A DNA stretch of 64,000 nucleotides from Bolinopsis microptera. Its lineage: Eukaryota; Ctenophora; Tentaculata; Lobata; Bolinopsidae. The DNA lies in assembly GCF_026151205.1 (NCBI RefSeq), contig NC_087083.1, positions 3,629,460 through 3,693,459 on the forward strand. The letters are read 5' to 3'. Under the pieces are notes generated by a model, which was not told the DNA's origin, made no database searches, and saw only the letters and a program-made list of their open reading frames with translations. The position numbers and the translations under genes were made by a program. Shown one piece after another: positions 3 to 58,600 of the stretch (position 1 is its first letter; each line of letters opens with the position of its first letter).

Positions 3-2042
3 CTTTATAATTCGCTGAGAAGGAAGAAGTCACGACTTAAAACCCGTCTCTCTGCTGCAAAGTGTGCCAATGACCTAGCTCGAATCAAGAAAATTGAAGA
101 CGAAATTGGATTAATTTGCTATGAGATCAAGGAAGCTATAGTCCACCATCTTGATAAAGGTGAAAAGAGAGCAGTGGATAAAATTAAAGTCAATCCTAAA
201 TACTTTTACTCATACGCTAAATCTTTTTCTAAAGTTAAGCACAATATTTCAACTCTTCTAAACCGTGATAAGAAACTGGTAACTGAACGGAAAGAGTTAG
301 CTAATATACTGCAGCAACAGTTCTGTTCTGTCTTTAGTGACCCCAACTGCCCTGATAAGTCACTACCTACATTTACAGTACCACCTCTCACTAGTAGGGA
401 TACAGAACTGGTACTCACACCTAACCACATCGTGGAAGCTATATCTGAGATTAAGCTGGACTCTGCACCCGGACCCGATGGTATTCCTGCTATTCTCCTC
501 AAAAGATGTGCTTCAAGCTTGAGTGTTCCGATCCATCTCCTCTGGTCTGAGTCCATGTATACAGGCATAGTCCCAACTTTCTACAAGACTGGATATGTCA
601 CACCGCTTTTCAAGAAAGGTAGCAGGTGTGATGCTGCTAACTACAGACCGGTTACTCTGACCTCACATGTAGTCAAAGTCTATGAAAGAGTGGTTAGGAA
701 ACACATGGTTCAGCATCTCGAAACCAACAATTTGTTATCTGACAAACAACATGGTTTCAGATCGAACAGAAGCTGCTTGACCCAAATGCTCGATCACTTT
801 GATGACATCTTTGAAGGGTTTACTCAGGGGAAAGACACAGACTCCATATACCTCGACTTCGCCAAGGCGTTTGACAAAGTTGACTTGGACCTTCTCTTGT
901 TAAAGTTAAAGAGATACGGATTTCACGGCAAACTTCTAAGCTGGATCCAGTCATTTCTCTCTGACCGTGAACAGGTTGTAGTCCTAAACGGTGTTCATTC
1001 GGACAGTGCCAGGGTTCTAAGTGGTGTCCCTCAGGGAAGTGTGTTAGGACCACTATTGTTCATTTTGTTTATTAACGATCTAGAGCTAGCTGTTACCTCT
1101 TCTAAGGTAAGCTTCTTTGCTGACGATACTAGGGTCTCCAAACGTATCGATTGCTTTGAGGACTGTCTGCTGCTTCAGGCTGATCTGTACGGTATTCTCG
1201 ACTGGTCACGCTGCAACAACATGAAGCTCCACGAACAGAAGTTTGAGCTCCTGAATCATCTCCACAATAGAAAAAGTACCTTTTCTGAACTTCCTTTTTA
1301 CGTGGGAACTCTACTTTACAAGGTCTCCAGCGAGGAAATACTACATCCCGTTGAGAACGTTAGAGACCTCGGAGTTATGGTATCAAGCGATCTGAACTGG
1401 TCCAAACAGATCGGTAATATGGTCAAGAAAGCTAGAAGCACACTGTCATGGGTGTTTAGTGTCTTCAAAACTCGTGATAGGACCGTAATGACTACCCTAT
1501 ATAAGTCTTTGGTCAGAAGCCTACTAGAGTACTGTTGTCCGCTGTGGGACCCTGTTAAGGTGACTGAGATCCAGCTTTTGGAGGGGGTCCAGCGAACATT
1601 CACCGATCGTATATGCGGTCTGGAAAATATGAACTACTGGGAGAGGCTTTCACATCTAAAGCTAATGTCACTGCAGCGCAGAAGGGAACGGTACACTATT
1701 CTGATGATGTGGAAGATCCTTCACAATGTTGTCCCCAATTGCAGCAATATAAGGTTCACAAAAACATCCAGACATGGTACCCGAGCAATCATCCCTTCCC
1801 TGTCTAGGTTGAGTTCCTCGAGCAACCAGACACTCTATGACAGCTCATTTGCTGTAAGAGGACCAAAACTGTGGAACAAAGTGCCTGATAATATTAAAGC
1901 TGAAGCTACGTTTGAGTCGTTTAAAGTTAGTTTGTCCAAGTTTATTGCTTTGATACCGGACAACCCTCCGACTTCCGGTTATAGCTGCAGCTGGTCTAAT
2001 TCCCTGGTAGACTACTCGCCAACGAGGTGGTCAGAAATCTGA
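3..2042 (+). CDS. LINE ORF2 (3' part), reverse transcriptase, jockey/CR1/L2-like
   Basis: The frame is open from the first bases of the window; the endonuclease part lies off the left edge. The protein has the LINE reverse transcriptase blocks in order: the GPDGIP block (about 470-490), YRPVTLTS (about 640), KQHGFRSNRSC (745-780), YLDFAKAFDKVD (845-885), SGVPQGSVLGPLLF (1020-1060) and the catalytic FADDT box at 1116-1130. The C-terminal tail ends with the WNKVPDNIK block common in LINE ORF2. Stop at 2040-2042. Uninterrupted over 680 codons, so a young insertion. The clade is inferred from general RT resemblance (non-LTR, APE type); a tree would be needed to separate CR1, L2 and jockey. A minisatellite begins about 40 bp past the stop, so the true 3' end is unclear. 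It may sit in an intron of the minus-strand golgin-like gene. Confidence 0.9.
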   Translation, partial: LYNSLRRKKSRLKTRLSAAKCANDLARIKKIEDEIGLICYEIKEAIVHHLDKGEKRAVDKIKVNPKYFYSYAKSFSKVKHNISTLLNRDKKLVTERKELANILQQQFCSVFSDPNCPDKSLPTFTVPPLTSRDTELVLTPNHIVEAISEIKLDSAPGPDGIPAILLKRCASSLSVPIHLLWSESMYTGIVPTFYKTGYVTPLFKKGSRCDAANYRPVTLTSHVVKVYERVVRKHMVQHLETNNLLSDKQHGFRSNRSCLTQMLDHFDDIFEGFTQGKDTDSIYLDFAKAFDKVDLDLLLLKLKRYGFHGKLLSWIQSFLSDREQVVVLNGVHSDSARVLSGVPQGSVLGPLLFILFINDLELAVTSSKVSFFADDTRVSKRIDCFEDCLLLQADLYGILDWSRCNNMKLHEQKFELLNHLHNRKSTFSELPFYVGTLLYKVSSEEILHPVENVRDLGVMVSSDLNWSKQIGNMVKKARSTLSWVFSVFKTRDRTVMTTLYKSLVRSLLEYCCPLWDPVKVTEIQLLEGVQRTFTDRICGLENMNYWERLSHLKLMSLQRRRERYTILMMWKILHNVVPNCSNIRFTKTSRHGTRAIIPSLSRLSSSSNQTLYDSSFAVRGPKLWNKVPDNIKAEATFESFKVSLSKFIALIPDNPPTSGYSCSWSNSLVDYSPTRWSEI

Positions 2043-38700: not shown

Positions 38701-41700
38701 GTTAGACTTAAGTGCACATTTTTAAGTTGTGTATAATAATACGCATTTAAGCTATAAACTAACTTGCCATAATCTTTACTTAATTACATTTTTCATGAAA
38801 TTTCACAAAACTTCTAGTTTATCTGTGTCGTTAACGTTATCGAAACGTTATCGAAACGTTATCGAAAGAAAAATTGAGAATACCGTTTTAGAAATGTTAA
38901 ATTAAAGTTTATTTATCTATTATTTATTTTGTGATAACTGTGGTATTGCGGGTACGATTGTTGGGGATATAAATTATCTGTACTATCCATAGTTCCGTTC
39001 AATCAATGTAATTGGTTTGTCCTTCTTCGAGAATGGCCTTTTGTAGTTTTCTACGAAGGACTTTTCTCCCATCTTCAGATATAATAGGCTTGCTTGTAAA
39101 TTATTTTAGTTTATTATTTTAGATTTCCGCTGTGTATGCCAGGAGCCTATCATGTAGGGATTCTAGAAATTTCTGTTTTCCTAATTTTGACAGACCCCAG
39201 TCCCACCAGAAAGGTGTTTTCATTTGATGATTTTGCTGCAGCTGAAGCCTTTTTTGCTATGTTAGTAAACTATTTCAATAATTGTGCTATGTTAGTAAAC
39301 TATTTAAATAGTTGTGCTTATTATCAAACATGTCAATCTTACAAATGTCAACAATCCTAAAATAATTTAGAACCGAAATGTGATCCTTTGTAAGATTATA
39401 TGTCCCAAAAGTCAAATTGACTTGTACTCAAGTATAAAGTCGAACAATTTACTCCAATAACCACGGTCACTAGCAAGTTCTCTCAAATGAAGAATATCAT
39501 CATACGACTTAAGCAAGATGAAACGCTTCCAGAGGTCAACCTTCAGGTGGTGTAGGAGGTTACGTCTGTGAGCCCCGAGTCTACCAGCTTCACTGCACAT
39601 CTCGACAGTAAAACACAGCGCAGCTTGAGCTGGTGATCTTTCATCGCTCCTCAGTATGTGTCCTAGCATCTTCCACCTAGATAACTCAGCACGCTCAGAC
39701 ATAAGTAGAGTTACTCTGTTTGTAGAGGGTATCTTTGGACATCATACTGCGTGGCCAGCTGACATTCATGATCTTTCTGAGGTGGTTACGGTGACATGCA
39801 TCTAGTTTGTCCCAGTACGATTTAGGCATTCCCCAGCAACTAGAGTTATACATGAGGATAGATACTACTTGGGCCTCATAGACCTTCAGCTTCTTCTGTA
39901 GGGGGATCTTACTCTGGCACCAGACCTTCTTGAAGTTCTGGAATGCTACATTGGCTAACATGATTCTTCTGGTGACATCTTTCCTACTTTCTAGCAGAGA
40001 ACCCAATAACTTGCTACCGCACCATTCTTCATTCATTCTAAGGGGTTTACCATCATCCATGACCTCATCTTTCCCAGCTATGTAGACGTGTACAAACTCT
40101 GTCTTTGATTCATTAATATTCAGATTCCACTCTTTGAACACCTTAGTAGCGATAGGGAGGAGGGCTTCTAGAGCATCTTTGTCTTCACCAAGATAGTCGA
40201 TGTCATCAGAGTAGGCATCTTCTTCAGGCATGCCACTAGGGCTTATAGGAGGGGTTGGGCGCAGCGTCACGGCACGCAGGTGGTAGCAGGCACCAGCTAG
40301 AGTGATTGTGAAACAGAGGCCTGAAACACTATCACCTTGGGGTCCTCCATTGGTGCTGATGAATTCAAGGGAGGTAGCGTTGTTGACTCGCACCTTGATC
40401 TTGGTGTTGCTCAGGAGGAATCTCACTAGTCTGATCTCATCTCTTGTGCACCCTGCGTCCTCTAGGAGGTTGAGCACAGTCTGCCTACTGATCGTATCGA
40501 AGGCACTGGACATGTCTAGGCCCATCTTATGGAAAGACCACTCTCTTTCTTTTACGATGCTGATCAACATACGGTGACACCATACCAGGTCTCCACAGCT
40601 TCTCTTCTGCTTGTAGGCAGCTTGCCATGGACCTGTGTAAGCGTCTACCTTTGCTTCAATTCTCCTGGGTGTAATGAGGGATAGCAGCTTACGAGCACAG
40701 TTACATAATGTCAAGGGTCTGAGGCTTTTCAGTTCACCAGGAGTCTTGCCAGGCTTTTGAAGAGGGGTGATGAAACATTCTCCGACAGCGTCAAGGAACA
40801 GGTTCTCTTTAAAGCAGGTGTTAATGATTTTGGCGTAATGGACACATAGCGCTCTCCCACCATACTTGAGGAGCTCATTGGGGGTATTGTCAGGTCCGTT
40901 GGCTTTGCCGTTCTTGAGGCGTTTAGCAGCGGTTTTTACCTCATATTCTGTGATAGGGCAGTCGAGGGGAGAACGGATCGAGGGCAGGTTCATCTCCAGT
41001 CAGCTGTTCTTCGTACCAATCACGGAGTACTTCAGCTTTAGCAAGGTCTGTACCAATAGGGTACCCATCCTTATTGTGGACAACTATAAGCTTTGTCTCT
41101 TTGGTCTTAGCTAAGGATCTCACAGCTTCGAACATTTGATGCGTGTCGTCAGTTGATGAAATTTCTTCAGCTAACTGGTCAGCCTTAGCACACTCTAGCT
41201 CCTTCAGTCTCTTTTTGATGTCTTTACCGAGCTTATTTCTCCGTCCTCGCAGTACAGAGCTATCACAGGGCTTGTTGGTGCTTGCCAGGGCAAGGCGTAT
41301 ATTGTGTCGTTCTGCGACTAGGGCAACAACAGTAGGGTCATTAGAGAAGAAGCACTTATTATTAGCCTTCCTGTAACCTAGGGTCTCAGCAGCTGACTTA
41401 TGAACTTCACCCAGTACTACTGCAAAGTCCTTGTTGGGATCACCTGAGGGTTCAGTAATAGCACATTCACATTTGCTGCTGATTTGTTGCTCTCTTATCG
41501 CAAGGCTTATCACGACACCGCTCAGCCTGTCGCTCGTCTTGTATTGTGTAACTTTAACTGTAATCATGGAAAAGATGGACTTGGAAAGTATTAACTACAG
41601 GTGGGATGAGATTTATTCTTGGAGCAAAGAGCAGTTGCGGAACTTTGGCAAACCGTACGGAAAGATGACGGACATAGCAGATCCGAAGTTTGCGAAATCA

Positions 41701-44700
41701 GTGAATAAGCCAGAACTTGTTGGCATTTGTAGTCGGTCTTATGAGTACATTGGCTATTTAATGGATACTGTGGAGTCGTACCGAAATTGCTGCACAACTC
41801 TTCAGGCAAAGTTGATTCAGAACCAGGAAACTCTCATCAGCGTTCAGCAGGAGCTCTCTCAGTGTCAGTCCGAGAAACTGGAATCTATGAAGAAAATCGT
41901 GGAAACCTCAGTCGCTGATTCAGTTAAAGAGGAGATTAAGACTTACAGCGCAATTGTCAGCAATTCACAGACGGTAACTGCCCCAGTTATCTGCCCAGAA
42001 GCCCTAAAAAATGTTGTGAAGACCGTAGTCGCAGAAGAGGACCGTAGTCGAAATCTTCTTGTTTTCGGTTTGCCGGAGGAGGAGCAGGAAGAGTTAGAGG
42101 TAAGAATCGGCGAGGTTTTAGAGGAAATAGGGCAGAAACCGAAGGTGGAAGTAGTGCGACTCGGCAAGAAGAAAACTTCTACCTGTACTCGCCCAGTGAA
42201 AGTCTGCCTGACCAGCTCCTTGATCGTACATCAAATCTTAGCAAACGCTCGGAAATTGCGACAATCAGCCAAGTTTAAGACTGTGTTTTTGAGCCCTGAC
42301 AGATCACTGGAGCAGCGGGAAGCCCGAAAGGAGCTGATTGCCAGCATGAGAGCTAAAGCTTTAGCGGAGCCGGACAAAAAGTTTTACATTAAGGAGGGAC
42401 AGATATTCAGCTGTAGTCGCAATTGAGTGTATTTATCAGTACATGTGTGATAATGCTTGTTTTTCAGTGTGAGTGAAGTTTTAGTTAGTGCTAAGCGGGT
42501 GCCTACTAGGCTTTTAACTTTCTATACAGGACTGGATAGTCTTCAGACTGTTTTAAAGCTTATTTTTAGTGCAAGAGTTGGTTGCTAGGCATTGCATTTA
42601 TCTAAGCAGCGCTTGTATTCAATAATTAATGAAATCTTATTAGCGGATTTAGGTATATAATTATTGTATATATTATTGTATGTATAAATTCTTGCGTAAA
42701 CATTAACCAGTAAACAAAGCTGGTTCCCAATCAGGGTATTACAGTAGAAAGTCTACTAGCAATGTCATGTTCATACGCTCGTTTACAATCGGGGTCTGAT
42801 GTGAGCCTGCGAGTGTCAAACATTTTAGGACGTTTAGGAGCTTTAGCGTAGAACAAGGGGCGTTTAGACAATTCAATCTTACATATTACAAGCCTATGGT
42901 CAGAAATAAACACCATACCGTTGTGCGACCTAGCATCTCTGAGCAGACATTTACTTCTTCTTTTACAAAGAATATAATCTATCTGAGTAAACACTTTACG
43001 CTTTTTACCAGACTGATCTTTGACATTAACCAAACCCTCGTAAGTGGTCCGATGACTCGCACGGTGAAGGAAGGCAGTATTAGCAGCAAACAAGTCGTTT
43101 CTACACATGAAGTTGAGAAGGTAGTGACCGTTATGGTTCCTTTTACCCATACCGTGCCTGCCGACATAATCTGACACACCATTTACATAATCTGAGTCAT
43201 CAAGCTTACCCAGCCTACCGTTGAAATCTCCCATCACAAACAACTCGTATCTTGAAGGAATGACAATAGCTGAACTGACTTGCTTGTACACTTTCCTGAC
43301 AATTTCTGGTCTGAGTTCTGATTTGGTGTTAGTGGGGCAGTACACATTGACGGCTCTAAACATGACGGGTTCACCGTGCTTTACAGGCAATCTGAAATCT
43401 ATCCACGCAACACGGTCACTGACACGATGATATTGAACAATGTACGGTACTAGCCGCTTTGATACCACAAACCCCAGACCTGCATAACAGGCATCCTTTT
43501 GTTCAATGATAATCAACTTATTGCCACAGGGTAACATTGCTTCAAATGGCTGAGTGATCTTAGTTTCTTGAAGGGCTATAACGTCTAATTTATATTGAGT
43601 ACAGTCACGTCCTAATATATGTTGGTCTACTTCTTTACTCAGCCCACGAACATTGAATGTTGCAAGGGCTAGAATGAGTGAGAGAGGGAGCAACTTAGGG
43701 ACGATGAGTAGAGGGTTAGAAGCTGCAGCAGGAGTAAACTGTGTCTCCCTGCTTCTGCCGATGTGCTTGACGTCATCACTGGTCATCCCACCTATGTTAG
43801 TAAACTATTTCAATAGTTGTGCTATGTTAGTAAACTATTTAAATAGTTGTGCTATGTTAGTAAAATATTTAAATAGTTGTGCTATGTTAGTAAACTATTT
43901 AAATAGTTGTGCTATGTAGTAAACTATTTAAATAGTTGTGCTATGTTAGTAAACTATTTCAATAGTTGTGCTATGTTAGTAAACTATTTAAATAGTTGTG
44001 CTATGTTAGTAAACTATTTAAATAGTTGTGCTATGTAGTAAACTATTTAAATAGTTGTGCTATGTTAGTAAACTATTTCAATAGTTGTGGGGTCAGGGTA
44101 ATTGTGTTATCATGGATGACATCTAGGGCTGTGGTGGTGGGTGAATCATGATCATGAGTGAGACCATTACTGGTGAGTGAAGTGACACTACTAATAGCTT
44201 GTCCTGAAATATTTCCAGTATTGAAACCCACTTTTAATACTTTTAAATTTATAAATCAAAAACACTGTGAATGAACGTCAAATAACCTTCAAGAAGAGGA
44301 TCGAGGGGAGCAGTGGGTGAGTCTGTGACCTCTACTGTGAGTGAATGGCTGGTGGAAGCTGTGCTCTCTACCTCTGTCTCTGAAAATCAGGTTTTAGTTC
44401 ACTACATGTGATAAAATCAGACAGAACAAACTGAAACAGGAAAAGTGTGAAGAAACAAATTTTAAGATGTTGTGACAGTGAAATAATTGCGATAATCAAC
44501 TTCCTACTTTTACCTTCATGTTGAAGCTGGTTTGCTGACACAGGGTGAAGCATCGTAGGAAGATCAGTGTCGCTAGAGCTCAGCTGCATGTCCCCATCAT
44601 AGTTGTACTCCTCCTCGGACTCCTCATCTGACTCCTCATCGGACTCCTCAACTACAGCCTCTACATCAACATCACAAACAGTAACAGGGTCGGGAAATGC

Positions 44701-46617: not shown

Positions 46618-49600
46618 ATGTCAATATTTTATCTTACACTTCACATTCCATCCATTCTTGTTTATAATTGTATATCGTCAGAGTTTTGAGACATACCTGT
46701 ATATTACCTGTATCAATGTAAACTGTACAGAGGTTGTCATTAAGAAGTTAGCTTGTGCTACTGCCCGTTACCATTCAACCGATATGATACTTCCTCAGCT
46801 ACCACAACTCGTTTGAGATATAACTAATCCAACATTAGGATCCACTGATATACCTTGTAGTATTCTTCAAACACCGTTAGAGTCCCGTTAACGGGAAAAC
46901 TTTTTCGAATAAAAACTTCCTTGTAAAACTTCAATACAAATCAATATACTTCTGCGATGTGTTTGGAGAGACTTAATCTATTTATATTCATGTCCAACCC
47001 TTCAGTTGGCTGAGGGTACCTTTGTAGACCTTTTAGGAAGCTGCAGATACAATAGATTTATTCCCACCAAATTTTATAAATTACTCTATGATCCAAAATA
47101 GACCAAAATGCTAACAAAACGTACTCTCAATTTTGGCTAATTTAGTATCCAAGAAAGCAATGTTAGCATTAAGCGCAGTAGGCTGCGCGCACAATTGCGC
47201 GCTTCTCTGACTCGAAATAGGTCACATGTGACAACAAATAATTCGATTATAGACAGCAGTACAGTATCCGGCAAAGATGCGACTTTGTTATTCCCTTTAT
47301 CGTTTAATATAGCTAATGAGGAGTCTTATTTATCTTTAACTTCAATCTTCTTTTAGGATATAGTGCCCACTGTTTCCGGTCCTTCAAGAGATAACATTAG
47401 GTTATCATACGTTTCAATGTCCTTTAAACGCTAAACGCAAATCTACCAATATATCTGGGACGTACATTTTTTTTTATTGAAATCTTTCAAATCGATCAAT
47501 TACATACAAATTTACACAATGAATGAACAACATTAAATTTTCTCAAAAGTATAAGACTCCGATAAAATCAGATTTTCTAGGACAAAATGTATGTAATCAA
47601 AGGACCTGAGGGTCACCAAAACACAGATGTTGAGAGCAAAATGCACCTCCTGCACAAGTATGGGCCCACGAAAATCTTAAATTTTAAATAGAATTTCAAA
47701 TAGAAACACACAAAAATATCAAAAGCAATCAAATCATATAATAAAGTGAAATACATGATGTGATGACATGCACTAAAATGAGAAATGAGAAATACAGACA
47801 ACAGGGATTTAAGCTCCTTATGAACATATTGTTAGCTTTAGGTAAACTGCTTCACATCTCTGTCTCGAGGGAAAAATCTAGATCATAATCAAAGTCCTCC
47901 GGCATAATTTTATCCCACATGTAGGAGGTCAATTTGCTTTTGAACTCAGAAATAGTCTCTATCTCACGTATATCTAGAGGAATATGATTCCATTTGGAAT
48001 GGGTCCTAAAGTAAAAGTTCTTAGCAAAAGCGTTAGAGCTTGCTCGTGGTAAGATCGAGCTTACAAAACATAAGGGGTCCATGTGGCTATTTCTTAACCT
48101 TGAGTGGCCTTGATATGGTTGCAAATATGAGGGTAAAGTGACAGGAATATGTTGCTTCACAATTTTAAAGAAGAAAATAAGGTCAAGAAAGTCGAAGCGG
48201 TCTTCTATGGGCATAATCTTAAGCTGTCTGCATTTCTGAATGTATGTGGATGGTGGATAACTCATATACTCCTCGCGAAGAATCCACTTAATAGCACGCT
48301 TTTGGAGGCCCTCCAGCTTGCTTATCTGGGATTTTGTGACCGGTCTCCATATAACTGAGCAATGCTCAAATTGACTTCTCATTAAAGTGAGATACAGTAC
48401 TCTACGACGATTTACATCTTGAACAAAATAGCAATTTCTCCTTGCCATGCCTAATTTTTGGTTGGCCTTTGAGAGGACTTTAGAGCACTGGTCTTGCCAG
48501 TCGAGATTCTTGGTCACAAAAACACCCAAATCCTTTTCATGATCGACATAGTCAAGTGCGATTCTTCCCATGGAGTATACAAAGTTAAAGAGTGGTAGGA
48601 CACTAAGGAGGGAAACTGTTTCGGATATCCTTCCTGCGACGGTGAGGACCTTACATTTGTCGGGATGAAATCTCATTTTATTAGAAAGTGACCAGTCATG
48701 GAGATAATCAATGTCCTTCTGCAGTCGCAGGATATCAGACTCCGAAACAATCTCACGCCAAATTTTAGTATCATCGGCATACAGTGACAGTTGTGTGCCA
48801 GGTGAAATCCCCACTGATATATCATCAATGAACATAATGAACAACAAAGGTCCCAAAATTGACCCTTGTGGTACACCAGATTGGGCGTTTCTCATGGAAG
48901 AAAACTTACCACTTATCAAGACCTGTTGTTGCCTGTCTCTTAGATAATCAGTGATGAATTTCAGTAGCCTCCCATCAATACCAAATTTGCTCTTTAGCTT
49001 AAATAATATAAGATCATGGTTAACTGAGTCGAAAGCTTTGGCAAAATCAAAGTAGACTACATCTGTTCTCATATTTTCATTCAGTGAGAGAGCTAGGCTG
49101 TCACATAGACCTACAAGATTAGTTGCACATGATCTTTCAGCTCGAAAACCGTGTTGTTTATCGTTGATCATGCCGTTAGTAAGTGCAAGTAACTCATCTT
49201 TAATTATGCGTTCAAGAACTTTGGTTATTAAGCATGTAAGGGATATTGGCCTATAATTTGAAACCTCGTGTTTATCACCTTTTTTATATATGGGTACAAC
49301 GTGTCCCAGTTTCCACTCCCTAGGTAATGTCCCAATGTTGTAACATGAATGAAATAATAGTGATAATGGGTATGCAAGCCCAACAGCACAGTTTTTCAAA
49401 AGTTTCCCATGAATACCGTCAGGCCCATAAGCTTTGTTAGGGTTAATATTGGAAAGGATTTTTCGAACCCTTTGGTGGTCAAATGCAATATCAAAGCGCC
49501 AATCGTTTGAATAATCAATATCTATGTCGTATAATGATGCTTCAGAGAACTGCTCAAAGAAAAAGCCATTAAATAAGTTGGCCTGGTCCTCTGGGCAGTT

Positions 49601-52600
49601 GCGGACAATGCCTTTGTAGCTTACAAACTCAGGAATTCTTTGACTAGCTGTTTTTGATTTTACATATGACCAGAATTTTTTTGTTACAAGAGCGCTATCA
49701 TCTGATTCATTTAATGTTTCTCGCATTTTTTGAGCAACCACATTTTTGAAGTTTTTCCTGGCAAGGGAGAATGCTATTTGGGCTCTATCGCTTTTATGTC
49801 TATCTTTATGCAGTCTTATTTTCTTGCGCCATGCATCATAGCACTCTGAGTCAAACCATGGATCTTGTCCATCTGTCTTAACTGAGCATTTCTTGATGAA
49901 TTTGTCAGTGATATTAAAAAGTTTTTCTTTAAATTTTTTCCACCCAATTTCAGGTTCTGTGCCATTAAGCAATACATTCCAGTCTGTGTGCCGGAGTTCA
50001 TGGTTTAGCCTCTCCCAGTTCACGTTTTTATAGTTATAGCACATACGCTTAACCGGCTTCTTCCTATTTACCTTAATGTTGATCTTAAAGTTGATTGGAA
50101 AATGATCAGACTTACAGACGCTATCTCGCTCACCTACCATTAGGTCACTGATATTAGACTCAGAGTTTGTGAGCAAAAGGTCCAGTATTTTGCCTTTGCA
50201 ATGTGTGGGTGTAAGTACACATTGCCGAAGGCCAAGGTCTACAAAAGATTCAACAAAAATCTGCTCAATAGGACAGGAGCCGGCCAAGGTAGACCAGGAG
50301 ACTCCAGTCAGGTTGAAATCTCCCAGGATAAATACTTTGCTTAGCCCTCTTCTCCGAAGAAGAGTTTTCAGAGATCCAAGAATTTTTTCATGATTTGCAA
50401 AGCCCAGTGTACCAACACGATAACATGTACAGATAACAAATTTAATGCCCGTTGATGTTGTAAACTCCACAGCAAGAATCTCTGCCCCCTCTTTAAGTCG
50501 GATTTCTTTCGAAGATAATTGAAGGTCTGCTCTCACAGCAATCATGACCCCGCCACCATTTCTCCTAAACCTGGTCGGATTAGAGGGATCAGGTGGATGA
50601 GTTTTCTTAGATCTGTCAGAGCGAAATATCTTATATTTATCAGGGTGCAGGAATTCGCTATCAGCTATGGAGTTTTTAAACCAAGTTTCGTTAAGTATTG
50701 CAATATCTATATTTGCCTCATTAAAATAAGTTGAAAGCTCAAGACATTTGGTGTTATCAAGCATTGGGTGGGCATTATTAAGCTCACCGAAGGGAATAAG
50801 GCCTTGAACATTCTGAAAGTAAACATTCAATACCTTACTATTCCCCAACCTAATATCTATAGGAGGGGGACCTGGGTTTACGATTCCAGGGTTTACAAAA
50901 ACTATCAAAATACCATTCAACAAGAACAACCAAATTATGCATCCAGTTAGTGCAATGCCAGCTCTACCAGTAGATAAAAAGTTTAAATTCCTATAAATTG
51001 TAACATGGCAGAAATTGTAAAGGCCATCGAAACTATAATCATTCCGGAAATAATACATATTTGCTAAGTGTAGAAGGAAATATACAGTAAAATATCGGCA
51101 CAGGTTAGGCACTGGATATGTTGGTACAAAGGCTCGGCAATCATATGTGACTCTAGAAAAAGCCAACCCACTAACCCCCGCACTAGTGATGATGATGAGT
51201 GAGAAATGGCATATGAATAAAACATAGAATATATATAAAAAGAAGCTAGGATCAATGCAGCTGTCTAAAATGTCAAAGATACTACCTGTACCACGTCTAC
51301 GGTTCTGATGTTTAATGGCTCTTGCGAAAGAATTTCCACTAAACACTCCAACTCTAAATCTATATGTTACTAAATCGATCATGGTAATTTACAGGTAAGT
51401 ATACTTGCCAGACTACATCTGCATATAACTAGCTATACAAGGTCCATAATACAGCTCAGGTTAAACTATTGATATACAAAGGGATTAAAATATCTACTGT
51501 GTATGGCACGAATATAAGACCTAGCCAACACCCCCATTCCTTTCTGAGGATTGGGGTGAATACCATTGCTCTCAAATAACGGGTCAAATCTCCTAACGGG
51601 TTCCTTATAAGTTCTCTTGAATTTAGTGAAGGGATAAAAGACATCCATAAAGAAGAACCTCCTGAATACACATTCATTATATAAAATCCTATTAAAGTCT
51701 ATTATCCTCTTGTTAGTTAATCTATCATCATCAGACGTTAAGGGTAATGGCAATAAAGATTGAACATAAACCTTGCAATTAGGAAATAATTGGCATATCT
51801 TACTAAAGAGTTGCTTCAGAGGCCCTCTAACTATGCCTACATCCTCTACCCGTCTAATATCGTTCGTACCAACACTAATTAAAAGTTTATCAACCTGAAC
51901 ATCAGGATGTGCAGCAGAATAGTCCTCAAGCTGCTTCTGGACCTTGTCCATCTTTGCTCCACCTTGTGCAACATTCTCGACTTTGACTTTCCCTTTTCCC
52001 AGCTTGTCCGAGTCCAATCTCTGAGCAAAAGAGTCTCCAGCAACCAACGTGACTTTCTGCACAGGTTCTTTGACTTTAATGCCACAAGCAGGTGTACTAG
52101 TCTCACTGGCACTGTTGGTTTCAGAGCTGGCCTGGCTACCAGTTTTCACGATTGCGCGAAAAGACAGGGAGTATCGCACTTGGTCTTGACCATCCCCCTC
52201 CGTACCAGTAGCCAGCTCTGCACGCACCTGATGCTTCAGATTCTGCTGTGTCCCAGGCCTCATTACGACAAGGCTGTTGTTCTTCATCCTTATTGCTTTG
52301 GCACATTTAGGATTCTTCTTTGTACCCTCGTAAAACTCAAGTGTCCGTTCACACCCCAGGGAGAAAGAGCATATCGATTTCTCCTGATCGATGAGTGTCT
52401 CGTCGTCACGGTGTAACGAGGTGCTGGCCTGGTTGTTATTATACTTAATCACCAGACAGGAGTCCAAAGGTCCAGTTATCTCTGTGCTTGAGTTAACGAG
52501 ACTCAGCAGCCTTTTGATGTTAGGGAAACTACTGATATCCTGTGGTGAGTGTACTGGGTTTGTGTCCGGGTACGTATAAGCCTGATCCTGCGAGCATAAC

Positions 52601-55600
52601 CAAGCGGTTTGAGCCTTGTTTCTCCCCCCAGGGTTCATCTTCAAGGACCCACACTCCACCCATACTGCATCAAGGAGGACATCATCACCACAGAAGTCCT
52701 CTAGGTGCAAAACAAAGTTGTCCACCTTTCCCTCACGCTTAGGGAGCTCGTTCTGGACACAGTTGAGGATATTTTGCAGATCCTCAATTGAAGCAGCTTT
52801 AACATAGTCGAAAATCTCTTCAAGGTTTATCATTATTATCAGAGATTGTCGAGTCTGGCAGCAAAGTTTGCCGGGGAACCATCCATAACACCCCAGAGTA
52901 GGCAACCACACACAACACTGAACACTACCTGAAGGAGAAAGGGCAAGAGAAAATGGGTAATGGTACAAGTGGTTCTAGGTAAATTTTGCCAAGCGTAAGT
53001 AAATTTTGCCAGTGAAACTTTAGCTAGAATAATGATAAGAGGGGCAATATCAGAGTTGTAAATGTGTGACTAACATCAAATGTTATCATTGAAAGCAAAA
53101 TTATGGGTAAAATCAAAGTAGAAGATCAACTTACAGCGTGTTTGAGGGTGTTGCTGCCCAGTGCAAGCACTGGGCGAGAGGAGCCTAACTCAAGGGTGAA
53201 CTTCAGGAACCCCAGCGTACCCGCATACCAGGAGATCGGCTGTACTTCCTAGCCCGTCATGCCATCGTACATGCCTAAATTATTTGTTATATAGTAGTGT
53301 TGAAAGTATTAAAACAAAAATAAACAATGTACTTGTATATAAAAATAAACAATGTACTTGTATATAAATATACAACACACACTAATCTAATCTTTCTATT
53401 AACTTTCAAACCAGTCAAATAAGCTGTAACCAGGATAGATTTGGTATCAGATGATAAATTTAAGACAATCCAATCACTAATGTTGCGTGAATTGTGGCGG
53501 TTAAAAAAAAGATGGTCGTGGCAATTTTCAGTGACATTGCCTAATCATGATTCTTCATCGTAGAACCTTACTTAGAATAGCTAGGCAGCAAGGTTTGTGG
53601 CAGCAAGGTTTGTGGCCTCTGAAGCAATGGGGCCAACATGGGAAACCATGATACATCAGAAGAGATAACCAGAGTTTGATTGAGTCCTAACTTGACATGT
53701 GATTGTATTTCAGTGTTTGATGATGGGGACGAGCGGACACTAGGCAGGAACTGTGTGTGCCCACAAGGTGCCAAACACTTCAACGAGGAATGGGTTAGTA
53801 GTATTCTAAGTTACTTTCACTTCACTTACAGTATACTTACAGTACACAATGCGGGTCCGGGACTGTACGGTGTAAGACTCTAACCCTAACCCGCCCAAGA
53901 GTCTTACACCGTAGAGTCTCACGCCCTAGAGTCTTACACCGTAGAGTCTTACACCGTAGAGTCTTACACCGTAGAGTCTTACGCCGTAGAGTCTTACGTC
54001 GTAGAGTCCGGACCCCCACAATGCACATACAGTTAGTGCAAACTAACGGTCTACAATAATACAGGTTTATTGTTTAGCTCGGTGCTTTACTGCACTGTGA
54101 TAAGTAAATAATTTATAAACTATTATTTTTTCAGACGTTGGATCACTTACCACTTACGAACCCTGAAAACTTTGGGACTCCCGTTATTTTGGAGAGTAAA
54201 AAGCAGAGAAAAAGAAGAAAGGTCGATGGTCCGGACAGGTAAAACATTGATATTTACCAGTCACGTCTAACCTATCTTAGCTAGTAGTTAAGTAGATTCT
54301 GTATGATCAGTTAAACTTATTATTATACATGTTAGTGGGATACACCTGTTAATAACCGCCTTCTGATTGAGCGACATCTGTCCGATAGCGACATCGCTGT
54401 CGGACAGGAGTCATTTTTGGCGACATCTGTCCAACTTTTATCATATCGATCTTATAGAACACTTGTTAACTCGCAGTGGACGAAGTGCTCACTACAGCGA
54501 AGAGGATGTAGGTAAAGTTGCGTTCTACGATACCCGCTCAAAGAAGCAGACTCTGGTACCGGTACTGATTACCTCTCACAGCCAGTGTGACGAGTTCGTA
54601 GCTACTAATCCTGGCGAGGTTATCGTTAGGAGCTTCAAATCCGGCAAATTGTGAGTAGAAACAAACTTTAGCTCACCTGCACTCTGCACTCTGCTTTAAA
54701 TCCGGCAAATTGTGAGTAGAAACAAACTTAAGCTCACGTGCACTCTGCTAAAAAGACTGGTAGCATCATCTGTACGTTAGAGTAAGTAAGAGAAGTAAAA
54801 TGTTTTAAGTGTTATAATGTTTCAGCATGTCGATACCGAAGGAGGATATGTTACGATTTGACAGAGAGACAGAACCTCTGCAATCAATCCTGACAAGTTC
54901 TTCTCATATTATTGTCCTGAAACCAGCTCTAGGTAAGATATATAACAGTGTTACATCCTGTCTCCTTACTCCTTACTCCTTACTACTGACTCCTTACTCT
55001 TCACTCTTTTCTCCTTACTCTTCACTCCTTACTCTTTACTCTTCACTCTTCACTCCTTACTCCTTACTCCTTACTCCTTACTCCTTACTACTGACTCCTT
55101 ACTCTTTACTCTTCACTCCTTACTCCTGTCTCCTTACTCCTTACTCCTTACTCCTTGCTCCTTACTCCTTACTCCTTACTCCTTACTCTTCACTCCTTGC
55201 CCATAGTGGGGCAGCTACTCCCCTTTTAGTTAATATACTTATCATATTGTTATATTGTTAGACTTACTTACTTACTTGTAATTGAAAAGGTCTCCTCCTA
55301 GTCGTTGGAGTGGCCTGCACCACATAGTAACTCCTTTCTCCGGTGTATTAGACCTCTCCAGTGAACCCTGTCTGTAGTTTGTTGTTCTGCATCTTCTATC
55401 GTGATGTTATCGACACCTGTGAAGATTGCTGCATCCTCCCGGACACATGACAACCAGTTTTTCCGAGGTCTACCTCTTGACCTTTTACCATGCTTTGGGA
55501 TCCAGTGCAGAAGATAGTTGGGTATTCTTTCTTCTGGCATCCTCACCACATGGCTAAACCATCGGAGTCTAGCTGCTCGTACGAAAGTATCAACAGGGGC

Positions 55601-58600
55601 GATGTTAGCCCGCTTAAGTACATCAGCATTAGATACATAATAAAACCATTTGATTTTTAGGATTCTCCTCAGACATCTATGATGGAACACCTCAAATCTT
55701 TTCATCTGCGTCTGTGTGGTATTCCATACCTCACTTCCATAAAGCAGTATAGTGAGCACAGCCGCTTTGTAAATCCTGATTTTAGTTGGAGTCTTAATGC
55801 TGCGACTGTACCATATACTGCTAAGCTGATAGAATGCCCCAGAGGCCTTTTGAATTCGAGCTGATAGTTCTTTGTCAATTGTTCCATTCGCACTGATGAT
55901 TGCACCCAAGTAAGTGAAATTGCTGACCTGCTGTATTGGGAGACCTTCCACATTGATGTCCAATGGACAATTGTCCATAGTGTCGTCTTTAGAATACGGC
56001 CTCTGCGATGCACTTTTGCTGACAACCATGCTCTGTGTTTTGCCAGCATTAATCTTCAGACCCGCATAGGCACTGTATTTGCAGAGAAGGTCAGTGGTTT
56101 CCTGCAGCCCCTCTTTTGAGTTATCTAACATGGCCATGACATGTCATCAGCGTAATCAGTGTCCAAGAGATGTTTCTCTTCTACCCCGGGGGCTGGCAGC
56201 TGTAATAAAGCCCCCTTGCTAATGACTTTGTTTAGTTCCATAAGGTATGCCGAAAAATTCAAACAAAAGACTGGTGGTCCCTGTATATCACCTTGCCCAG
56301 TTCCCGAGTTGACATCAAACCAACCTGTAACCTCTCCATTGACCCTAACATATTGTTATAATAGACAGTTTTTGGGTTTTCCAAATAGTTTCTGATTATT
56401 CTGATTTGCGACAAATGATATTGCACTGTTAGGATAAACGACGTTTCAAAGTAACAACTTCTTATTCATGCTGACAAAATTGGTAAATATGTGAGAAAAC
56501 TGTCTCATAAAATTTATTAATCAAAAAATGGCTAAACGACAACAAATTGTTCAAATACTCGACTAAAATTAGAATCAAAATCTATATTATATATACACCA
56601 CTAATCGATCTGCTATTCAATAAACTTAAAACATCCACTAAACAGCAAGTACGTGATTGTGATCGTGTGATGGAATGACATGTACAGTGATAACAGATGA
56701 TAAGATGTAAGTGATAACATATGATGAGGTAAATATATATATATTTATTATATATATTTATAATATTGTTATAAGGTGCATTAATTTAAAATCTTTAATT
56801 TTCAGAGAAAGCGCTAGCGTTCTACGACACCGGAGTATTGCCGATATCCTGGGAAACTGACACCGATTCTACTGTTCGCCTAACCGAGCCGGAAAACTTG
56901 AACAACGCTAAATTAAAGAAACAATTCAACAGTGGTCTGTATGAGTACTGGGAGAAGAAAGGTAATATCCTAGATAAAAAGTTATTATATTAGAAACAAT
57001 GTTCCGTGCTCTTACTATGAAATTAGAGAAGAGGCAAGTATCTTCTCAGAAGAGACATACAGTCATATTGCTGGCCTTAACTCCAAAGAACTGAAAATGA
57101 CAGCTATTAAGGCCCCCCAGAAGTTGCCGATATCTCATCTCCCTTTACCACGACATGTTATATCCCTTTACCACGACATGTCATCTCCCTTTATCACGAC
57201 ATGTTATATCCCTCTACCACGACATGTCATCTCCCTTTACCACGACATGTCATCTCCCTTTATCACGACATGTTATCTCCCTTTACCACGACATGTTATA
57301 TCCCTTTACCACGACATGTCATCTCCCTTTACCACGACATGTTATATCCCTTTACCACGACATGTTATATCCCTTTACCACGACATGTTATATCCCTTTA
57401 CCACGACATGTCATCTCCCTTTACCACATGTTATATCCCTTTACCACGACATGTCATCTCCCTTTATCACGACATGTTATCTCCCTTTACCACGACATGT
57501 TATCTCCCTTTACCACGACATGTTATCTCCCTTTACCACGACATGTTATATCCCTTTACCACGACATGTTATCTCGGGCCCTATCTCCCTTTACCACGAC
57601 ATGTCATCTCCCTTTACCACACCATGTCATCTCCCTTTACCACGACATGTTATCTCCCTTTACCACGACATGTTATATCCCTTTACCACGACATGTTATC
57701 TCCCTTTACCACGACATGTTATCTCCCTTTACCACGACATGTTATCTCCCTTTACCACGACATGTTATATCCCTTTACCACGACATGTTATATCCCTTTA
57801 CCACGACATGTTATCTCCCTTTACCACGACATGCTATCTCCCTTAACCACGACATGCTATCTCCCTTTACCACGACATGTTATCTCCCTTTACCACGACA
57901 TGTTATATCCCTTTACCACGACATGTTATCTCCCTTTACCACGACATGTTATCTCCCTTTACCACGACATGTTATCTCCCTTTACCACGACATGTTATAT
58001 CCATTTACCACGACATGTCATCTCCCTTTACCACGACATGTCATCTCCCTTTACCACGACATGTTATATCCCTTTACCACGACATGTCATCTCCCTTTAC
58101 CACGACATGTTTTCCCCCTTTTACCACGACATGTCATCTCCCTTTACCACGACATGTTATCTCCCTTTACCACGACATGTTATCTCCCTTTACCACGACA
58201 TGTCATCTCCCTTTACCACGACATGTTATATCCCTTTACCACGACATGTCATCTCCCTTTACCACGACATGTTATCTCCCTTTACCACGACATGTTATAT
58301 CCCTTTACCACGACATGTTATATCCCTTTACCACGACATGTTATCTCCCTTTACCACGACATGTTTTCCCCCTTTTACCACGACATGTCATCTCCCTTTA
58401 CCACGACATGTTATCTCCCTTTACCACGACATGTTATCTCCCTTTACCACGACATGTTATCTCCCTTTACCACGACATGTTATCTCCCTTTACCACGACA
58501 TGTTATCTCCCTTTACCACGACATGTTATCTCCCTTTACCACGACATGTTATATCCCTTTACCACGATACTATTTGCCAGGAAGTCCCATAACACGGAGA

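What the first reader, a model, noticed from the sequence alone, without database searches (positions are those of the whole stretch)
51466..52968. LINE ORF1 that fuses an AlkB-like dioxygenase to an SGNH hydrolase
ORF1 of an intact, TSD-flanked CR1-like LINE has a complete AlkB signature (H186xD188, H246, R265, R271 in the expected blocks) followed by an SGNH hydrolase (GDS, Gly block, GTND, His471). Esterase ORF1s are known in CR1 elements, and AlkB domains are known in plant flexiviruses where they act on methylated RNA. I do not know of this fusion in a LINE. It would suggest a retrotransposon that carries its own nucleic-acid demethylase, perhaps to protect its RNA from alkylation or host m6A/m1A marking.
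Basis: partly seen in the sequence, partly recalled or inferred. Interest (0 to 1): 0.93.

Follow-up and report, generated by a model that had tools for sequence, protein, structure and literature searches.

The report
Jumping gene with AlkB-like enzyme
A family of self-copying DNA elements in this (probably comb-jelly) genome encodes, in the protein expected to coat its own RNA, an enzyme domain of the AlkB type that elsewhere strips methyl groups from DNA and RNA, and AlkB domains also turn up in several other mobile elements of the same genome, including one of a quite different class.

Summary
Confirmed, and broader than the finding. ORF1 of a full-length LINE (minus strand, about 47467-53315; ORF1 51466-52833, 455 aa from ATG; ORF2 47852-51382) fuses an AlkB-family 2OG-Fe(II) dioxygenase (Pfam 5e-17; predicted fold closest to ALKBH2/ALKBH3) to an SGNH hydrolase (3e-13). 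All five AlkB residues are present in 158 of 165 scorable rows. The own genome holds five ORF1 copies at 97-100% identity (window included) and a family at 80%; between these families dN/dS is 0.15 (AlkB) and 0.10 (SGNH). ORF2 follows ORF1 in 30 of 30 loci. Of 17 other AlkB places read in this genome, 12 are in further LINE-type ORFs and 2 in a Helitron-type DNA transposon; SGNH there is below Pfam's cut-off but recognisable. Corrections: target-site duplication not confirmed; true start 45 codons downstream; the SGNH domain lacks the usual catalytic Asp. Best mechanism (inferred): the element ties an alkyl/methyl eraser to its own single-stranded intermediate, clearing polymerase-blocking m1A/m3C-type marks. 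Nearest precedent found: an ALKBH5-like ORF in orchid Gypsy elements. Ten searches of an open-access library showed no AlkB-SGNH ORF1 in their listings.

The parts
47467..53315 (-). Full-length LINE copy; 5' end near 53313-53320, 3' A-tail at 47467-47475
   Evidence: Boundaries from comparison with four other genomic copies; the 5' end is uncertain by a few bases
52834..53315 (-). 5' UTR, about 485 bp, shared by five copies
   Evidence: blastn between the upstream regions of five copies, 93-99% identity
51466..52833 (-). ORF1, 455 aa, AlkB-SGNH fusion protein
   Evidence: frame; ATG start supported by relatives and by the other four copies
52144..52728 (-). AlkB-type 2OG-Fe(II) dioxygenase domain (structural extent; Pfam core 52156-52614)
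51493..52062 (-). SGNH hydrolase domain (structural extent; Pfam core 51544-52023)
47852..51382 (-). ORF2, 1176 aa, endonuclease plus reverse transcriptase
   Evidence: PF14529 3.1e-10 and PF00078 1.4e-29; R2 and L1 RTs are the best PDB sequence matches
47476..47851 (-). 3' UTR ending in ...GATTTCAAT before the A-run
   Evidence: same end in three other copies and in the fourth (C6)

Best explanation
Shown: the window holds an intact, recently multiplied LINE whose ORF1 protein is an AlkB-family dioxygenase joined to an SGNH hydrolase, with both domains under purifying selection; AlkB domains, with recognisable SGNH domains in most cases, also sit in ORF1-like frames of other LINE lineages and in a Helitron-type element of the same genome. 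Inferred: the AlkB domain is an active Fe(II)/2-oxoglutarate demethylase, probably of ALKBH2/ALKBH3 type, physically tied to the element's own single-stranded intermediate (RNA bound by ORF1p in the LINE, single-stranded DNA handled by the Rep protein in the Helitron). It removes alkyl marks such as N1-methyladenine and N3-methylcytosine, which block reverse transcriptase and DNA polymerase, so that the intermediate can be copied in full. The SGNH part probably serves membrane or lipid association or particle assembly, as proposed for other LINE esterases, perhaps with altered catalysis.
Confidence: 0.43

Rival explanations
1. The AlkB domain is an m6A RNA eraser that lets the element's RNA escape m6A-based host control, as proposed for orchid Gypsy elements.
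Against: The sequence profile finds ALKBH3, ALKBH2 and AlkB but no FTO or ALKBH5 chain at E <= 0.1. In mammals METTL3 facilitates L1 and ALKBH5 suppresses it (PMC7873242, abstract start in listing). A Helitron has no RNA transposition intermediate (general knowledge), though its mRNA could be a target.
Confidence: 0.22
2. The enzyme acts on element DNA: it removes a host DNA mark or repairs N3-methylcytosine left by host DNA methyltransferases, and so counters silencing or damage of the inserted copies.
For: AlkB occurs in a Helitron-type DNA transposon too. ALKBH2 bound to double-stranded DNA is the top fold match. Fungal DNA transposons carry TET/JBP dioxygenases with a proposed role of this kind (PMC12730594, passages). 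CpG observed/expected is 0.51 in the element and 0.62 in the window, compatible with CpG methylation.
Against: 12 of the 17 other AlkB places read are in LINE-type ORFs, those with enough sequence lying upstream of endonuclease/RT, i.e. in the place of ORF1; the fungal study found no TET/JBP gene in retrotransposons. DNA methylation of this genome was not measured.
Confidence: 0.22
3. The AlkB fold is kept mainly as a nucleic-acid-binding module in an ORF1 type that otherwise lacks one, with catalysis secondary.
For: [quoted passage not shown] the AlkB domain could fill that place.
Against: Iron and 2-oxoglutarate ligands are complete in 158 of 165 rows, which binding alone would not demand; the domain is acidic.
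Confidence: 0.08
4. Artefact: a host AlkB gene, a pseudogene, or a chance join next to a LINE.
For: The genome also has AlkB frames that look cellular (L001, L002).
Against: ORF1 and ORF2 lie together in 30 of 30 loci; near-identical copies on five contigs; two Mnemiopsis gene models join AlkB to endonuclease or endonuclease/RT sequence.
Confidence: 0.01

Closest known systems
Type IV (esterase) ORF1 of LINEs, e.g. zebrafish ZfL2-1 (PDB 4c1b)
   Same: ORF1 of an endonuclease-type LINE with an SGNH hydrolase; profile match to 4c1b 2.1e-6
   Different: AlkB domain where the others are reported to have coiled coil and often an arginine-rich motif; triad Asp and the transposon-specific His are missing; bacterial esterases match better than 4c1b
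AlkBH5-like ORF of Phalaenopsis Ty3/Gypsy elements (PMC9289625)
   Same: retrotransposon that encodes an AlkB-family dioxygenase
   Different: LTR element in plants, separate ORF, ALKBH5 type; no SGNH domain is mentioned in the passages seen
ALKBH2 / ALKBH3
   Different: cellular repair genes; 16-23% identity in the structural alignments; no SGNH fusion
AlkB domains of plant RNA viruses
   Same: a selfish genome encodes an AlkB domain inside a replication protein (PMC544882, abstract passages)
   Different: RNA viruses, replicase polyprotein, no reverse transcription
TET/JBP dioxygenases of fungal DNA transposons (PMC12730594)
   Same: 2OG-Fe(II) dioxygenase spread among several mobile element lineages
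   Different: different dioxygenase family; reported in DNA transposons and not in retrotransposons

Membership tests
AlkB family (PF13532) | HxD...H iron ligands and two Arg for 2-oxoglutarate | tested here: met
   all present in the window ORF; complete in 158 of 165 scorable rows
AlkB family (PF13532) | AlkB-type fold | tested here: met
AlkB family (PF13532) | oxidative demethylation of nucleic acid | not testable with these tools
   needs biochemistry
ALKBH2/ALKBH3 subtype | closer to ALKBH2/3 than to other AlkB subtypes | tested here: inconclusive
   profile and best chains say yes, but DNA-free ALKBH3 ties with FTO and no tree with all subtypes was made
SGNH hydrolases / esterase-type LINE ORF1 | Ser, Gly, Asn, His of the four blocks | tested here: met
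   complete in 152 of 156 scorable rows
SGNH hydrolases / esterase-type LINE ORF1 | catalytic Asp three residues before His (D279/H282 in ZfL2-1) | tested here: not met
   among 152 rows with the His, Asp at -3 in 3, at -2 in 67, none within four residues in 79 including the window
SGNH hydrolases / esterase-type LINE ORF1 | transposon-specific His four residues before Asn (H191/N195 in ZfL2-1) | tested here: not met
   Ser in 154 of 168 rows, His in none (S, C, R only); placed by motif register, without a structural alignment
APE-type LINE (CR1/L2/Jockey superfamily) | ORF2 with APE-like endonuclease and RT | tested here: met
APE-type LINE (CR1/L2/Jockey superfamily) | target-site duplication | tested here: inconclusive
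   none convincing in five copies
CR1 clade proper | RT phylogeny inside CR1 | not tested
   no named reference RTs at hand
Orchid Gypsy AlkB elements | LTR retrotransposon with separate ALKBH5-like ORF | tested here: not met
   endonuclease/RT ORF2, A-tail, AlkB fused inside ORF1
Helitron (L044, L005) | Helitron_like_N domain in the same frame as AlkB | tested here: met
   PF14214 2.8e-22 in L044, which starts inside the AlkB match at C10:16875843-16876241 and in its frame

The most novel reading that the evidence does not exclude
AlkB plus SGNH is a mobile enzyme cassette that has spread through several LINE lineages and into a Helitron of one animal genome, tying a nucleic-acid demethylase to the single-stranded intermediate of both retrotransposons and DNA transposons: a general counter-measure of mobile elements against alkylation damage or methyl marking.
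Probability: 0.45. Interest if true: 0.93.

Novelty: new variant of a known kind. Interest (0 to 1): 0.86.

Why it matters
ORF1 proteins are the least understood part of LINEs. A conserved, selected demethylase-type domain in ORF1, with AlkB repeated in several LINE lineages and a Helitron of one genome, suggests that methyl or alkyl marks on element nucleic acids are a real barrier to transposition in this animal. It makes that idea directly testable with purified domains and catalytic-dead mutants.

Tried and rejected
Host gene or pseudogene: rejected. 2A peptide at the NPGP of the ORF2 N-terminus: NPGP is in the first 400 residues of 104 of 120 ORF2 relatives, but none of 105 sites has D-x-E-x before it, so no claim. 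TSD: looked for, none convincing. Related loci in IMG/VR and in GTDB contigs: 63 and 65 pattern matches, none confirmed. Placement of the RT in a named clade: not possible with the sequences at hand. In one search ALKBH5 and the ZfL2-1 esterase are not among the 50 rows shown; that is no test. Rows dropped: P0080 (a gene model that splices ORF1 to ORF2) left out; 17 of 169 rows with many gaps left out; P0120 left out because its second Arg is Cys. In some searches the AlkB frame L001 was cut with wrong end coordinates (63 residues off, stops shown as X); its AlkB core was in frame; trees of the AlkB half and the SGNH half share 81 of 149 splits (0 or 1 in 20 label shuffles), distance correlation 0.86, but 4 pairs of well-supported splits conflict, so some exchange between copies is not excluded. 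The tree holds only three possibly cellular AlkB domains and does not show a single origin. Literature one search used a term the search tool reshaped and found nothing; some searches listed only part of their hits (15 of 19, 15 of 502, 12 of 66, 12 of 249).
Full report
What is there. On the minus strand of the window lies a full-length LINE, about 47467-53315. ORF2 (47852-51382, 1176 aa) has an endonuclease domain (PF14529, 3.1e-10) and a reverse transcriptase (PF00078, 1.4e-29). ORF1 carries an AlkB-type 2OG-Fe(II) dioxygenase (PF13532, 5.4e-17) followed by an SGNH hydrolase (PF13472, 2.9e-13).

Not chance. In a database of about 5.8 billion proteins, 126 relatives had E <= 0.001 and the 120 best are listed; a second search from 15 distant members returned 54, of which 49 had new ids. 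After leaving out one chimeric gene model, 169 rows (168 proteins and the window) were aligned. H186 is His in 164 of 165 rows with a letter there, D188 Asp in 164 of 165, E190 Glu in 165 of 165, H246 His in 169 of 169, R265 Arg in 166 of 169, R271 Arg in 165 of 169; S313 Ser 169 of 169, G337 Gly 167 of 168, N369 Asn 166 of 166, H471 His 152 of 157. All five AlkB residues are present in 158 of 165 rows, all nine in 145 of 152. The two halves have mostly evolved together: identity distances correlate at 0.86 and 81 of 149 tree splits are shared, against 0 or 1 with shuffled names, although 4 pairs of well-supported splits conflict.

Copies in the genome. The window's assembly (264.65 Mb, 232 contigs) holds five full-length ORF1 copies at 97-100% identity, the window included; a second family at about 80% with ten full-length copies without stops and others broken; and more distant families at 32-44% (96 matches, 93 of 735 candidates scored). 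The four other copies share the window's A-tail, and its 5' end about 485 bp upstream of the ATG, copy C1 with a different first stretch. ORF2 sequence follows ORF1 in all 30 loci L009-L038, of which L010 is the window and L029 and L036 are pieces of one element. Against five members of the 80% family dN/dS (Nei-Gojobori) is 0.15 for AlkB, 0.09-0.10 for SGNH, 0.13 for the N-terminal 36 codons and 0.50 for the linker, at dS about 0.9 in the two domains. Among the near-identical copies there are few differences; three have more silent than replacement changes, while L013 has 11 silent and 14 replacement changes, 5 and 9 of them in AlkB. So both domains have been kept by selection between families, and the family has moved recently.

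Host. Two of the relatives are gene models of the ctenophore Mnemiopsis leidyi that join AlkB sequence to endonuclease or endonuclease/RT sequence; ORF2 is 88% identical over 692 residues to one of them. The window also carries ordinary eukaryote genes (ribosomal protein L1, RNA polymerase III subunit Rpc31, cytochrome P450). The host is therefore probably a ctenophore; its name was not given and this is inference.

More carriers in the same genome. A PF13532 search of the genome returned 151 matches, 150 of 587 candidates having been scored; humans have nine AlkB-family genes (recalled). I read 17 of these places, at least in part. L001 and L002 look like cellular ALKBH genes (L001 was read but not scanned alone with Pfam). 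L003 is an AlkB frame with a weak SGNH-like frame about 700 bp further on and is unresolved. L006, L007 and L008 are copies of one 606-646-aa frame, and L004 a broken copy, with AlkB (5.7e-23 in L007) and an SGNH hit below the cut-off (8.3e-6); downstream of L007 lies a reverse transcriptase frame (L043, 2.7e-39). L046-L053 all have AlkB above the cut-off. Downstream in the same orientation there is an RT hit in L046, L049, L050 and L053, and only an endonuclease hit in L047, L048, L051 and L052, where the stretch ends or the element is broken (in L052 the endonuclease frame may belong to another element). SGNH is seen at E <= 0.01 in L046, L047, L050, L051, L052 and L053, always below Pfam's cut-off, and not in L048 and L049; L048 is 79% identical to L047 over 787 residues and L049 aligns with L052 over 576 residues, which supports SGNH there too. 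PHD-finger hits below the cut-off precede AlkB in L046, L049 and L052. The HxDxE...RxxxxxR pattern is present in each of the LINE-type ORFs tested (L007, L046-L053) and in L005. L005 and L044 belong to a third type: L005 has SGNH (4.2e-7, just under the cut-off) and then AlkB (2.1e-22) in a 2459-aa frame; L044 starts inside the AlkB match of a 3388-aa frame and has Helitron_like_N (2.8e-22) downstream in that frame. Six frames of 2225 aa or more are in the list; I read these two in part. In a tree of 23 AlkB domains L001-L003 and L047/L048 form a group (ultrafast bootstrap 95) apart from the window type, the Helitron and the other LINE lineages, whose order is weakly supported.

How it most likely works. 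ALKBH2/3-type enzymes reverse m1A and m3C, which block polymerases (general knowledge; for ALKBH3 on mRNA see the title and abstract start of PMC8254245, search listing). In the LINE the domain is part of ORF1p, the protein expected to package element RNA; in the Helitron it is part of the protein that handles single-stranded DNA. The common denominator is the single-stranded transposition intermediate, so I favour clearance of blocking alkyl marks from it (0.43). m6A erasure (0.22) and action on element DNA (0.22) remain open. The SGNH domain keeps Ser, Gly, Asn and His but has Asp at the usual place in only 3 of 152 rows, so its catalysis may be altered; the ZfL2-1 esterase binds liposomes even when its active site is mutated (PMC3905857, passages).

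Known or new. Esterase ORF1s are known (PMC3905857: abstract, sections 12-13 and passages; PMC4120745: abstract and passages; there the esterase type was found only in vertebrate groups, 'dioxygenase' does not occur in the main text, and 'AlkB' has no occurrence). An AlkB ORF is known in orchid Gypsy elements (PMC9289625, abstract and passages). Ten searches of the open-access library showed no report of an AlkB-SGNH ORF1 in what they listed; some lists were partial, searches did not ask for AlkB by that name, and subscription journals, Repbase reports and supplements were not searched. I therefore call it a new variant of a known kind.

Noticed in passing
L005 (G000:C12:2468080-2471481) and L044 (G000:C10:16876200-16882200): Helitron-type element with AlkB (and, in L005, a just sub-threshold SGNH domain) N-terminal to the Rep domain; a second class of mobile element with the same enzyme type.
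   Followed up: partly
L046, L049, L052: LINE-type ORFs with a PHD-finger-like region (below cut-off) before the AlkB domain.
   Followed up: partly
window 50867-50935 (ORF2 N-terminal region, minus): A hydrophobic stretch followed by NPGP, found in 104 of 120 ORF2 relatives, without the D-x-E of 2A peptides; role unknown.
   Followed up: partly
window 52930-53134, minus strand: The 5' UTR contains an intron-like stretch (GTAAG ... CTCCTTCAG), seen in all five copies printed, so it is not removed on transposition.
   Followed up: no
window 39695-43804, minus: Another LINE with RT and endonuclease in separate frames; no AlkB hit in the three frames scanned.
   Followed up: partly
window 33-1946, plus: Part of another LINE ORF2, 29% identical to the window ORF2 over 663 residues.
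   Followed up: no
window 57137-58567: Tandem array of a 23/46-bp unit that is open in three frames and makes long spurious ORFs.
   Followed up: no
L003 (G000:C5:22265392-22268829): AlkB frame grouping with the ALKBH3-like gene L002, with a weak SGNH-like frame about 700 bp downstream; host gene or element not settled.
   Followed up: partly
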